DNA of 11,507 nt from the NCBI GenBank assembly GCA_002731295.1, contig PCBE01000064.1:32787-44293 (forward strand), given 5' to 3'. Each line of letters begins with the position of its first letter. Position 1 is the first letter of the stretch. Below are positions 5,588-11,507 of the stretch, in pieces. Under the pieces are notes generated by a model, which was not told the DNA's origin, searched no databases, and worked only from the letters and a program-made list of their open reading frames with translations. This DNA is from Acidiferrobacteraceae bacterium. Its GTDB lineage: Bacteria; Pseudomonadota; Gammaproteobacteria; Arenicellales; UBA868. Both the position numbers and the translations under genes were made by a program.

Positions 5588-7324
5588 ATGCGCCAGGAAC
5601 TTCGCGACCTGCTGAAAATCTCCGTTTCAGCTCTGATCGAGGAAGGTGTGATCTCTGTAGATGTTCCAGCCGACGTTCACATCGAACGAACGCGACAGCG
5701 AGATCACGGCGATTTTGCTTGCAACATTGCGATGATATTGGCTAAGTCCGCCAGAATGAAACCACGCGATCTGGCCAGTTTGCTGCTCTCCCGTTTGCCA
5801 CAGAACACATTGATCGACAGAACGGAGGTGGCTGGACCGGGTTTCATCAATATCTTTCTGACCCATGATGCGTTCTACAAACTGATCCCCGTGGTCCGAA
5901 AAGCCGGGGATAACTTCGGTTGTTGCACCGCTGGAGAGCAAAAACGCATTCTGGTGGAGTTCGTGTCCGCCAACCCGACTGGCCCACTCCATGTGGGACA
6001 TGGCCGCGGTGCCGCCTATGGCGATGCACTGGTCCGAGTTCTCAGAGCAGCCGGATACGACGCCGCGAGTGAGTACTACATCAATGATGCCGGGCGCCAG
6101 ATGGATATTCTGGCGGTCAGTGTGTTTTTACGTTACCTGGAACTGTGTGGCGAAGAATTCGAATTTCCTGATAACGCCTACCAGGGGGACTACGTTTTCG
6201 ATATTGCGGCGAGTTTGCATCGCGACCAGGGGGAGGATTTGCGACAACCGTTAGACGCAATCACTGGCTCTTTGCCGGCAGACGGTGACCAATTGCTCGA
6301 TACGCTAATTTTGCGTGCAAAGACGTTGCTCGGTAAGGAACGGTTTACTCAAATACACGACTTGGCCGGAGATACACTGGTCGATGACATCCGTAAAGAC
6401 CTCTCACAGTTTAGAGTAACTTTCGATCACTGGTTCTCGGAAAACACCCTGGTCACAGGAAATGCAGTTGCACGGGCCGTGGAGAAGTTGACCGGAAACG
6501 GTCTGATGTATGAAAAAGACGGTGCATTATGGCTGCGTACGACTGACTACGGTGATGAAAAGGATCGCGTTGTAATCCGGGCTAATGGAAACCACACCTA
6601 TTTTGCAACTGATATTGCCTATCACCTAGACAAGTTTGAGCGTGGTTTTGATCATGCCATCAATATCTGGGGTGCGGATCATCATGGCTATATCAAGCGG
6701 GTCAAGGCTTCGATCGCAGGATTAGGCCGAGAGCCGGATGCGCTCACAGTATTACTGGTGCAATTCGCTGTACTGTACCGGAACGGTGAAAAGGTCTCTA
6801 TGTCAACACGCAGTGGCCAGTTTATAACGCTGCGGGAATTACGGCAGGAAGTCGGTACCGATGCAGCCCGCTTTTTTTATGCCCTGCGTAAACCCGAACA
6901 GCATATGGACTTCGACTTGGATCTGGCCAAGTCCCAGTCCAGTGACAACCCGGTGTACTATGTTCAGTATGCCCATGCGCGGATCTGCAGCGTTTTCAAG
7001 CAGCTGCTCGAAAAAGACATAGCTGTAGACCTTGATAATTCTGACTTTGGTTTGTTGACAGAAGAGCGCGAACTGGATCTGTTGCGTGAACTGTCACGCT
7101 ATCCAGAAATTGTCGAAACGGCTGCGCGCAGCTACGAACCTCACCTCGTCGCCTATTACGTTCGCGATCTCGCCAACGAGTTCCACACCTATTACAACGC
7201 ACATCCATTTATAGCTACCGATGCACCTCTCCGAAACGCCAGATTGTCGCTGATTGATGCCACCCGAGTCGTATTGGCCAACGCGCTCACTCTGCTCGGT
7301 GTTTCAGCACCGAGCAGTATGTGA
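5588..7324 (+). CDS. argS: Arginyl-tRNA synthetase ArgS
   Basis: ArgS is the class Ia synthetase that charges tRNA-Arg with arginine in the cytoplasm. The product is 578 residues, normal for bacteria (about 560-590). The N-terminal tRNA-recognition domain covers about residues 1-110 (RDHGDFACNIAM is typical). The HIGH signature is HVGH (135-138) within SANPTGPLHVGHGRGA, and YINDAG (164-169) is a family-specific active-site block. The KMSKS position reads VSMSTRSG (403-410), a variant common in ArgRS. The DALR anticodon-binding domain starts near residue 455 (NPVYYVQYAHARI) and runs to the end. ATG 5588 is used; no strong Shine-Dalgarno precedes it. The last codons include a perfect 10-bp inverted repeat. 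The stop codon is 4 bases before the SPOR-domain gene, so the two are probably co-transcribed. Confidence 0.98.
   Translation: MRQELRDLLKISVSALIEEGVISVDVPADVHIERTRQRDHGDFACNIAMILAKSARMKPRDLASLLLSRLPQNTLIDRTEVAGPGFINIFLTHDAFYKLIPVVRKAGDNFGCCTAGEQKRILVEFVSANPTGPLHVGHGRGAAYGDALVRVLRAAGYDAASEYYINDAGRQMDILAVSVFLRYLELCGEEFEFPDNAYQGDYVFDIAASLHRDQGEDLRQPLDAITGSLPADGDQLLDTLILRAKTLLGKERFTQIHDLAGDTLVDDIRKDLSQFRVTFDHWFSENTLVTGNAVARAVEKLTGNGLMYEKDGALWLRTTDYGDEKDRVVIRANGNHTYFATDIAYHLDKFERGFDHAINIWGADHHGYIKRVKASIAGLGREPDALTVLLVQFAVLYRNGEKVSMSTRSGQFITLRELRQEVGTDAARFFYALRKPEQHMDFDLDLAKSQSSDNPVYYVQYAHARICSVFKQLLEKDIAVDLDNSDFGLLTEERELDLLRELSRYPEIVETAARSYEPHLVAYYVRDLANEFHTYYNAHPFIATDAPLRNARLSLIDATRVVLANALTLLGVSAPSSM
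7292..7317 (+). promoter_or_regulatory. Stem-loop spanning the 3' end of argS, just before the SPOR gene
   Basis: CTGCTCGGTG (7292-7301) and CACCGAGCAG (7308-7317) pair perfectly over 10 bp around the loop TTTCAG. The element lies inside the last argS codons, ends 4 bases before the argS stop codon and 11 bases before the ATG of the next gene. No U-run follows, so it is not a standard terminator. Its position suggests an effect on translation coupling or mRNA processing between the two genes; this is inference. Confidence 0.55.
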
Positions 7325-9726: not shown

Positions 9727-10872
9727 CTAGGTGAGCACCAAGCGTAGCTTCTCGATCACTGTGTCGAGCTGCGCTTCAGTGATGACCAGCGGCGGTAGCA
9801 GCCGGATCACGGTTGGTCCGGCTGGCAGCGCCAGTATGCCCTGGTTCAGCAAGGCCTGCAGATAGGGGGTGGCCTTTTCCTTGAGCTCAATACCGATCAT
9901 CAGGCCGATCTGGCGTACGTCTCTGACCCGCTCTGGCAGGTGAGCGTTAAACTGACTGGCAAAATAATCACCCCGTACCCTGGCTTGTTCTGCCAGTTGC
10001 TGGGTCTGCATGAATTCAATGGCCGCGAGTGCTGCAGCGCAGGCCAAGGGGTTACCGCCGAAAGTTGACCCATGAGTGCCTATGCCGGGATCGATACGCG
10101 CAGAGCACACGACGGCACCCATGGGGACGCCACCAGCAATCCCTTTGGCTAGGCACAGCATGTCCGGCAAAAGGTCGTGATGCTGGCAGGCAAAGAAAGC
10201 ACCAGTACGACAGAAGCCGGTCTGCACTTCGTCAATAATAAGAAGCGCTCCACGGGCATCGCATAACTGACGAGCACCTGCCAGGTAATCTGCGTTGGCT
10301 GGACGGACACCGCCTTCACCCTGAACAGGTTCCAAAATTACAGCCGCGGTATTGTCATCGATGGCTGCGTCTAACTTATCGATATTGTTCAGGGGAACAA
10401 AGCTGCAGTTCGGCAGCAGTGGTTCAAACGCGTCACGGTATTTAAAAGTTGCACTGAGTGCGCCCAACGTACGACCGTGAAAACCACGCATCGCGGTTAC
10501 CAACCCGTTGCGCCCGGTCGTTTTTCGTGCAAACTTGATCGCCGCTTCAGTGCTTTCAGTGCCAGAGTTGCAGAGAAACACGCGCTCCAGACCGGGCGGT
10601 GTGACCTCGACCAGTTTTTTCATCAACCGCCCGCGCGTGTCATTAAAAAATATACCCGGGCAGGTAATCAGACTTTCTGCCTGGTGCGCAAGAGCAGCCG
10701 CTACCGCTGGATTGGCGTGACCAATGTTGGCAACGCCCACACCAGCGGCGCAGTCCAGATACTCAGTTCCCTGATCATCCCATAACAATGCACCTTCCCC
10801 CCGAACGATGGTCACACCCCGGCGGGGATAGATCGGCAAAGCGTAGCGTTCTTCGAGATCTTTACCGTTCAT
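9727..10872 (-). CDS. lysJ: LysJ-like aminotransferase (carrier-protein-linked semialdehyde; ArgD/LysJ family)
   Basis: This is a class III PLP aminotransferase of 381 residues. It has the family phosphate loop NSGTESTEAA (102-111), the ring-stacking FHGRT (131-135), Asp214 in IIDEVQTG and Schiff-base Lys243 in CLAKGIAGGVP. ArgD converts N-acetylglutamate semialdehyde to N-acetylornithine; LysJ does the equivalent step on a substrate bound to the carrier protein LysW. Several blocks match Thermus LysJ as I recall it: YPRRG..IVRGEGALLWD (15-32), GVANIGHANP (46-55), ILEPVQGEGGVRPA (179-192), GLMIGIELKEKATPY (323-337) and AGPTVIRLLPPLVI (351-364). Shared family motifs explain part of this, so the LysJ call depends also on its LysZ-like neighbour. 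It overlaps that upstream gene by 4 bases (ATGA), so the two are translationally coupled. An ordinary ArgD is the main alternative. Confidence 0.75.
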   Translation of the reverse strand: MNGKDLEERYALPIYPRRGVTIVRGEGALLWDDQGTEYLDCAAGVGVANIGHANPAVAAALAHQAESLITCPGIFFNDTRGRLMKKLVEVTPPGLERVFLCNSGTESTEAAIKFARKTTGRNGLVTAMRGFHGRTLGALSATFKYRDAFEPLLPNCSFVPLNNIDKLDAAIDDNTAAVILEPVQGEGGVRPANADYLAGARQLCDARGALLIIDEVQTGFCRTGAFFACQHHDLLPDMLCLAKGIAGGVPMGAVVCSARIDPGIGTHGSTFGGNPLACAAALAAIEFMQTQQLAEQARVRGDYFASQFNAHLPERVRDVRQIGLMIGIELKEKATPYLQALLNQGILALPAGPTVIRLLPPLVITEAQLDTVIEKLRLVLT

Positions 10873-11507
10873 CGAATAATCGTTCCACGGCCAGACAGTG
10901 CATCCCGAACGGGATGTTCTACTCGGCCGTCTGCGATGACAACCTCTGCTGCACCAGTGGTGAAGAGGGTGCGTAAAGCCAGCATTTTACGTTTCATGCG
11001 GCCTTCTACCTGCTGTTCGCGCTGCACCAGCTCTGCTTGAGTCATCTGGGGTACCACACTCGTCGGATCTTTCCGATTATCGAGAAAGCCGGGGGCCTCA
11101 ATCAACTGCAGAATCCTGGTCGCATTAATCCCTTTCTGCAAAATATTTACGATGTCATCGTTTTCAGAGTTAATGGCATGGCCTTGTTCGTCGATTATGG
11201 GTATGCTGATCACGGGGCGATAGTCGTGTTTCAGCAACAGTTCCAGCAGAGCAGTATTTGCGGAACGGGGTTTACCAGAAAAATCCCGCTTGAGGATTGT
11301 TTTCCCCCCCTCCCGAACTCGAATACCACGATTCCTTTCACCCTGAACGAGGCGGCCATCCAGACCACTGAGGCCGATCGCGTTGATGCCTTGTCGTTGG
11401 CAAAGCTCGACAAAACGACGGTTGCGAAGGCCCGCATAGGTCATCATGATGAGGTCTATGGCTTGCTCGTCAGAATAAACACTGGTATAGCCAGACAGCG
11501 AAGTCAG
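10869..11507 (-). CDS. lysZ: LysZ-like amino-acid kinase (ArgB/LysZ family), 5' end outside window
   Basis: The minus-strand frame is open to the window edge; 212 C-terminal residues are visible of an expected ~265. ATG codons at 11447 and 11444 are internal, because the coding match continues upstream (LTSLSGYTSVYSDEQ). ArgB and LysZ phosphorylate the side-chain carboxylate of N-blocked glutamate or aminoadipate with ATP. Visible motifs: YAGLRNRRFVEL (24-35), NAIGLSGLDGRL (42-53), AINSENDDI (111-119), EGRMKRKM (168-175), ADGRVEHPVRDALSG (192-206) and a GTIIR end (208-212). GLSGLDGRL, GRMKRK and the short DALSG-GT-IR end match Thermus LysZ as I recall it; typical ArgB has GxxGKDG, GGMxPK and a longer ending. 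This suggests the substrate is attached to LysW rather than N-acetylated. It is the first gene of at least a two-gene unit with the LysJ-like aminotransferase; more pathway genes may lie upstream, off the right edge. Confidence 0.8.
   Translation of the reverse strand: MTSLSGYTSVYSDEQAIDLIMMTYAGLRNRRFVELCQRQGINAIGLSGLDGRLVQGERNRGIRVREGGKTILKRDFSGKPRSANTALLELLLKHDYRPVISIPIIDEQGHAINSENDDIVNILQKGINATRILQLIEAPGFLDNRKDPTSVVPQMTQAELVQREQQVEGRMKRKMLALRTLFTTGAAEVVIADGRVEHPVRDALSGRGTIIR

What the first reader, a model, noticed from the sequence alone, without database searches (positions are those of the whole stretch)
9727..11507. Carrier-protein (LysW-type) amino-acid synthesis genes in an apparently gammaproteobacterial genome
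The kinase and aminotransferase occupy argB/argD positions but carry LysZ/LysJ-like motifs: GLSGLDGRL, GRMKRK and the short DALSG..GTIIR end in the kinase; VRGEGALLWD, GVANIGHANP and AGPTVIRLLPPLVI in the aminotransferase. Seen: these motifs and the ATGA overlap. Known: LysZ/LysJ act on glutamate or aminoadipate attached to the acidic carrier LysW in Thermus and archaea, and related carrier systems occur in some actinobacteria. Inferred: this bacterium makes ornithine/arginine, lysine or an unusual diamino acid on a carrier protein, either replacing or alongside the N-acetyl route. Neighbouring genes are ordinary core genes, so this would be a chromosomal pathway rather than a mobile island.
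Basis: partly seen in the sequence, partly recalled or inferred. Interest (0 to 1): 0.72.

Follow-up and report, generated by a model that had tools for sequence, protein, structure and literature searches.

The report
Carrier-protein operon with new release enzyme
This gammaproteobacterium carries a full set of genes that build a small amino acid on a protein carrier (LysW), with an unexpected glutaminase-like enzyme where the usual release enzyme should be, and the same arrangement recurs in several other groups of bacteria and in some archaea.

Summary
The two genes are real lysZ and lysJ. Just right of the window, same strand, lie lysW (54 aa, ending EEDWGE), lysX, lysY and a 211-aa class-II glutaminase-fold protein ("GAT"), then lysZ, lysJ. 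GAT is in all 36 LysW-bearing relatives found; order W-X-Y-GAT-Z-J recurs in several bacterial phyla and archaea. No LysK passes its cut-off in 40 such genomes; two archaea have no match at all. GAT's predicted fold is nearest EgtC; it keeps the catalytic Cys but has Gly for an Asp present in YafJ, GlmS and PurF. LysW's attachment residue is Glu or Gln here, switching at least 9 times, but Gln in only 1 of 158 listed Thermus- or Sulfolobus-type carriers. Best reading, inferred: GAT hydrolyses the gamma-amide of carrier residue 54, priming Gln-ended carriers and releasing product, as Dop does for Pup. This genome also has classical arginine and diaminopimelate-lysine genes, so its product is open. 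Verdict: new variant of the LysW pathway.

The parts
9727..10872 (-). lysJ, LysW-type aminotransferase (last gene of the operon)
10869..11507 (-). lysZ, LysW-type kinase, 3' part; the gene runs on to extrapolated window position 11660. Outside the window, extrapolated (contig C74 = window + 32786), all minus strand: GAT 11663-12298, lysY 12308-13333, lysX 13330-14163, lysW 14160-14324
10869..10872 (-). four-base overlap of lysZ stop and lysJ start

Best explanation
The window holds the end of a LysW carrier-protein operon, lysW-lysX-lysY-GAT-lysZ-lysJ. Shown by sequence: the gene set, its order and conservation, and no LysK over cut-off. Established for the families: LysX joins the alpha-amino group of glutamate or aminoadipate to the side-chain carboxyl of the carrier's last residue; LysZ, LysY and LysJ phosphorylate, reduce and transaminate it to a bound diamino acid. 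Inferred: GAT is the releasing enzyme in place of the M20 hydrolase LysK. It is an Ntn-type (N-terminal cysteine) hydrolase of the EgtC fold that hydrolyses the gamma-amide of carrier residue 54. That one chemistry would do two jobs: deamidate carriers made with a C-terminal Gln so that LysX can use them, and cut the gamma-glutamyl isopeptide bond to free the product. In archaeon AR15 the product is most likely lysine, in Gemmatimonadota most likely ornithine; in this gammaproteobacterium it is unresolved, a separate ornithine pool being my first guess (about 0.45).
Against: No biochemistry. GAT scores far below the EgtC cut-off (49.1 against 218.65). 38 of 40 genomes have weaker M20 matches that could hold an unrecognised releaser. 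The homoaconitase- and dehydrogenase-type genes in AR15 belong to families shared with leucine synthesis, and LysN was not sought. One Gln-ended carrier (P0276) turned up with the archaeal query, and neighbourhoods of those 158 carriers were not checked. The gammaproteobacteria do not need the operon for arginine or lysine by gene content, which leaves its purpose here unexplained. L144 and L153 show GAT-Z-J without W, X, Y nearby, and L098 only Y-GAT.
Confidence: 0.72

Rival explanations
1. GAT only primes Gln-ended carriers (a deamidase); release is done by an unrecognised M20 or other peptidase elsewhere in the genome.
For: 38 of 40 operon genomes have M20 matches below the LysK cut-off; in G000 the three are DapE, ArgE and another M20 hydrolase.
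Against: GAT is kept beside Glu-ended carriers, which need no priming (55 of 76 rows); AR15 and the Woesearchaeote have no such M20 match at E <= 0.001.
Confidence: 0.13
2. GAT is a true glutaminase that supplies ammonia to the pathway or to a partner synthetase.
For: It has the class-II glutaminase fold and weak Pfam GATase_4 similarity (20.6 bits, cut-off 23).
Against: The Asp shared by YafJ, GlmS and PurF is Gly in 105 of 105; no step of the LysW route uses free ammonia (family knowledge); this would not explain Gln-ended carriers.
Confidence: 0.06
3. About the product only: in this lineage the operon makes lysine from aminoadipate rather than ornithine from glutamate.
For: LysX keeps VNEVN(Y/H)TMEF(K/R)NS as in Thermus LysX, unlike Sulfolobus ArgX (VNELNDVPEFKG).
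Against: No close homocitrate synthase in the gammaproteobacteria searched: best-scoring matches 29-34%, in G000 LeuA and a CimA-like protein. LysA is present. The same motif occurs in lineages without ArgB, so it may not discriminate.
Confidence: 0.25
4. The two genes are ordinary argB and argD of the N-acetyl route.
For: LysJ passes the argD cut-off.
Against: LysW, LysX and GAT in the same operon; a separate ArgB over cut-off in the genome.
Confidence: 0.01

Closest known systems
LysW-mediated lysine/arginine biosynthesis (Thermus, Sulfolobus, haloarchaea)
   Same: LysW with EDWGE end, LysX, LysY, LysZ and LysJ in one operon
   Different: No LysK over cut-off; GAT inserted between lysY and lysZ; carrier may end in Gln; here it runs beside complete N-acetyl arginine and diaminopimelate lysine genes
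EgtC, amidohydrolase of ergothioneine biosynthesis
   Same: Nearest solved fold; N-terminal Cys; EgtC cleaves off glutamic acid (PMC11993508, passage), from memory as a gamma-glutamyl amide
   Different: Far below EgtC's family cut-off; sits in LysW operons; predicted substrate is a protein C-terminus
Dop acting on Pup (pupylation)
   Same: One enzyme deamidates a C-terminal Gln of a small modifier and hydrolyses the gamma-glutamyl isopeptide bond (PMC8223512, passage); the modifier ends in Gln or Glu by species
   Different: Dop is a different fold (from memory, glutamine-synthetase-like) and acts in protein degradation; here by analogy only
Dug2p-Dug3p glutathione-degrading complex of yeast
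   Same: A glutamine-amidotransferase-type enzyme that cuts gamma-glutamyl bonds (PMC7617739, passages and reference title)
   Different: Acts on small free peptides

Membership tests
LysW carrier pathway | LysW: small zinc-ribbon carrier with EDWGE end | tested here: met
   64.4 bits, cut-off 53.2; ends EEDWGE; four Cys in 34 of 36 relatives' carriers, five in 2
LysW carrier pathway | LysX ATP-grasp ligase | tested here: met
   TIGR02144 327.7 bits, cut-off 275.6
LysW carrier pathway | LysY reductase | tested here: met
   argC-type reductase in the operon, 387.6 bits, cut-off 233.6; no LysY-specific model appeared
LysW carrier pathway | LysZ kinase distinct from ArgB | tested here: met
   Best model is LysW-aminoadipate kinase, 1.2 bits under cut-off; all 21 LysZ rows apart from 8 ArgB rows
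LysW carrier pathway | LysJ aminotransferase distinct from ArgD | tested here: inconclusive
   Best model LysJ but under its cut-off, argD over its cut-off; apart from only two ArgD rows, long branches
LysW carrier pathway | LysK, M20-type releasing hydrolase | tested here: not met
   Own genome best 71.1 bits, cut-off 163.1, and that hit is DapE; 0 of 40 operon genomes over cut-off; own draft 81.5% complete
EgtC | EgtC family score (TIGR03442) | tested here: not met
   49.1 bits, cut-off 218.65
EgtC | Class-II Ntn-hydrolase fold with N-terminal Cys | tested here: met
Class-II glutaminase / amidotransferase | Asp at the position shared by YafJ, GlmS and PurF (alpha-amino recognition, from memory) | tested here: not met
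   Gly in 105 of 105
Dop-like modifier amidase (by analogy) | Deamidation and isopeptide hydrolysis at the carrier's last residue | not testable with these tools
   Needs purified protein and mass spectrometry; Gln/Glu switching is indirect evidence

The most novel reading that the evidence does not exclude
A class of LysW pathways in several bacterial phyla and archaea uses one Ntn-type gamma-amidase both to prime the carrier (C-terminal Gln to Glu) and to release the product, a metabolic counterpart of Dop and Pup that has replaced LysK; in gammaproteobacteria with complete arginine and lysine routes it feeds a separate diamino-acid pool.
Probability: 0.6. Interest if true: 0.88.

Novelty: new variant of a known kind. 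Interest (0 to 1): 0.76.

Why it matters
It would give a widespread pathway its missing last enzyme, explain carriers that end in the 'wrong' residue, and show that priming and unloading a carrier by one amidase arose in metabolism as it did in pupylation. It also bears on which uncultured Gemmatimonadota and archaea can make arginine or lysine: annotation that demands LysK or ArgB would call the route incomplete.

Tried and rejected
Replacement of arginine synthesis: I expected LysW-bearing relatives to lack the N-acetyl route. They do not: ArgJ is over cut-off in 32 of 36 with LysW and 38 of 44 without, ArgB in 35 of 36 and 40 of 44 (tallied). Replacement of lysine synthesis fell too: LysA 31 of 36 and 39 of 44.

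The M20 amidohydrolase near lysW (L010:9492-10685) as LysK: seen beside the operon only in four genus-g1 loci and in G005; it fits an amidohydrolase family (TIGR01891 over cut-off; CpsA 352.6 bits under its cut-off of 500). LysX motif as a substrate reader: the same with and without a homocitrate synthase nearby. A homocitrate-synthase-like hit in a Longimicrobiales chromosome (L190) lies beside frames that I read as LeuC and LeuD, so I take it for LeuA (no family search). GAT alone against PDB sequences gave no relative (one spurious hit at E 0.24); the profile reached 3mdn (2.3e-5) and EgtC (0.014-0.028). Papers: of 28 with two of the terms LysW, EgtC, glutamine amidotransferase and LysK, the 20 listed include none joining LysW with EgtC or glutamine amidotransferase; the one paper with LysW and amidotransferase is a rumen review (listing only); none of the 8 papers with EDWGE or EDWGQ has EDWGQ. 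Other listings. Most subscription journals are not held, so prior description is not excluded. PMC5584792 uses 'lysW' for a transporter gene (passages).

Full report
What is there. The window (G000:C74:32787-44293; draft of 2.5 Mb in 126 contigs, 81.5% complete) ends inside an operon on the minus strand. The two genes of the finding are present with all quoted motifs. The contig to the right shows, in order of transcription, lysW (54 aa), lysX (277 aa), lysY (341 aa, argC-like), a 211-aa class-II glutaminase-fold protein (GAT), lysZ (263 aa) and lysJ (381 aa), overlapping or a few bases apart. Families: LysW and LysX over cut-off, LysY as ArgC over cut-off, LysZ 1.2 bits under its LysW-kinase cut-off, LysJ under the LysJ and over the ArgD cut-off, GAT only weakly EgtC. 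A close named relative is titled 'Candidatus Thioglobus sp. MED-G25' (L080, GAT 96% identical).

How widespread. LysW is over cut-off in 36 of 80 relatives, G000 included. I fetched the other 35 neighbourhoods: 34 of 36 contain GAT, and all 28 with 2.3 kb or more on both sides have the five partners in order. The two others (L046, L073) stop at a contig end; the continuing contigs, fetched later, hold GAT between LysY and LysZ, so GAT is in 36 of 36. A scan of genome contigs with the GAT alignment gave 212 relatives, of which the best 80 were kept. Of these, 63 of 67 with room upstream have W, X and Y; 61 of 66 with room downstream have Z and J; 50 of 55 with room on both sides have everything. 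Exceptions: L095, L102 and L113 have W-X-Y-GAT without Z and J, L098 only Y-GAT, L144 and L153 GAT-Z-J, L133 no W found, L128 no J found. By record title the 80 include Gammaproteobacteria, Gemmatimonadota, Acidobacteriota, Calditrichota, KSB1, Ignavibacteria, Binatia, 'Deltaproteobacteria', Woesearchaeota and archaeon GW2011_AR15. A protein search counts 3042 relatives of GAT at E <= 0.001 (120 shown).

The missing LysK. TIGR01902 is over cut-off in 0 of 40 genomes bearing the operon or part of it (18 relatives with G000, 22 from the contig scan) and in 4 of 14 controls (which four is not printed). Thirty-eight of 40 have weaker matches; in G000 the three are DapE, ArgE and another M20 hydrolase. 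AR15 (record titled chromosome, 1.16 Mb) and the Woesearchaeote have none at E <= 0.001. Both carry, between LysW and LysX, genes like homocitrate synthase, homoaconitase large and small subunit and homoisocitrate dehydrogenase. In AR15 the first passes the homocitrate synthase cut-off, and also a 2-isopropylmalate synthase subfamily cut-off; the others fall in families shared with leucine synthesis. LysN was not sought. Read as an aminoadipate-lysine operon, it has every step I looked for except release, and GAT is the one gene left over. Seven of 80 loci have such a synthase in reach.

The Gln-ended carriers. In the LysW route the cargo hangs on the gamma-carboxyl of the last residue, Glu54 (PMC10433800 and PMC9303977, passages). 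Here the carrier ends EDWGE in 24 and EDWGQ in 12 of 36 relatives' loci, and in 50 and 14 of 65 genome-contig loci, the last one being frameshifted. After near-copies are removed, 21 of 76 end in Gln, and a tree of LysX+LysY+GAT needs 11 switches, at least 9 by its supported branches (quick method, no bootstrap; 101 loci reduced to 98, then 76). Among carriers listed for Thermus and S. tokodaii queries, 115 of 120 (of 152 found) and 36 of 38 end in Glu, 0 and 1 in Gln; the other six are extended, truncated or altered. Their neighbourhoods were not checked. Fisher p = 1.9e-10 ignores relatedness. LysX needs a free carboxyl, so a Gln end must be deamidated first. If the release enzyme hydrolyses gamma-amides at residue 54, Gln and Glu become interchangeable and can drift, which is what is seen. 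The precedent is Pup: some actinobacteria encode it with a C-terminal Gln, and Dop both deamidates it and cuts its isopeptide bond, chemically equivalent steps (PMC8223512, passage). GAT stays beside the 55 Glu-ended carriers, so it should do more than prime.

What it makes here. This genome has its own ArgB, ArgE, DapE, LeuA and a CimA-like protein, a partial ArgJ, and ArgH and LysA side by side. No classical ArgD is in the draft, but each of the three same-genus relatives has one besides LysJ, and all four genomes of the genus have a second ArgC-like protein below the cut-off (138-144 bits). Over 80 relatives ArgJ, ArgB and LysA are about as common with LysW as without (32/36 and 38/44; 35/36 and 40/44; 31/36 and 39/44). 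LysW counts are lower bounds: three 'negative' drafts (G014, G022, G027) hold a LysZ-like kinase. So here the operon runs beside the standard routes, and its product is a second pool of ornithine or lysine, or another diamino acid. LysX has a Thermus-like motif, but no close homocitrate synthase was found. Elsewhere the operon may be the main route: of 30 genomes tested, 14 have no ArgB over cut-off, among them all 10 titled Gemmatimonadota, Gemmatimonadetes or Longimicrobiales, three of these chromosome-level records. Whether they make arginine was not tested.

Trees. LysZ (21 rows) and ArgB (8) are split by one fully supported branch; LysJ (20) is apart from two ArgD rows. Both trees carry long-branch warnings, and no Thermus rows were at hand.

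Verdict. It is a new variant of a known pathway; the amidase's activity is a prediction.

Noticed in passing
window:8028-9716: A thiamine-pyrophosphate enzyme (PRK08199 subfamily, 822.8 bits, over cut-off) ends next to lysJ on the other strand; it is beside the operon in genus g1, G005 and G007, not elsewhere in the set.
   Followed up: partly
L010:9492-10685: An M20 amidohydrolase lies about 3.4 kb beyond lysW in genus g1 and in G005; not LysK by score.
   Followed up: partly
L120:5260-6926: Two LysX-like genes in tandem (70% and 58% identical to the query) in a 'bacterium' genome without ArgB over cut-off: perhaps one for glutamate and one for aminoadipate, as Sulfolobus has ArgX and LysX.
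   Followed up: no
L095, L102, L113: W-X-Y-GAT without lysZ and lysJ beside it; the genomes of L095 and L113 hold LysZ-like kinases elsewhere.
   Followed up: partly
P0276: The only Gln-ended carrier among 38 listed for the S. tokodaii query; its neighbourhood is unknown.
   Followed up: no
L126 near 5961-6115: The lysW frame is shifted before its acidic tail; assembly error or real loss not settled.
   Followed up: no
L011:10850-13686: argH and lysA lie side by side on the same contig, left of the window.
   Followed up: yes
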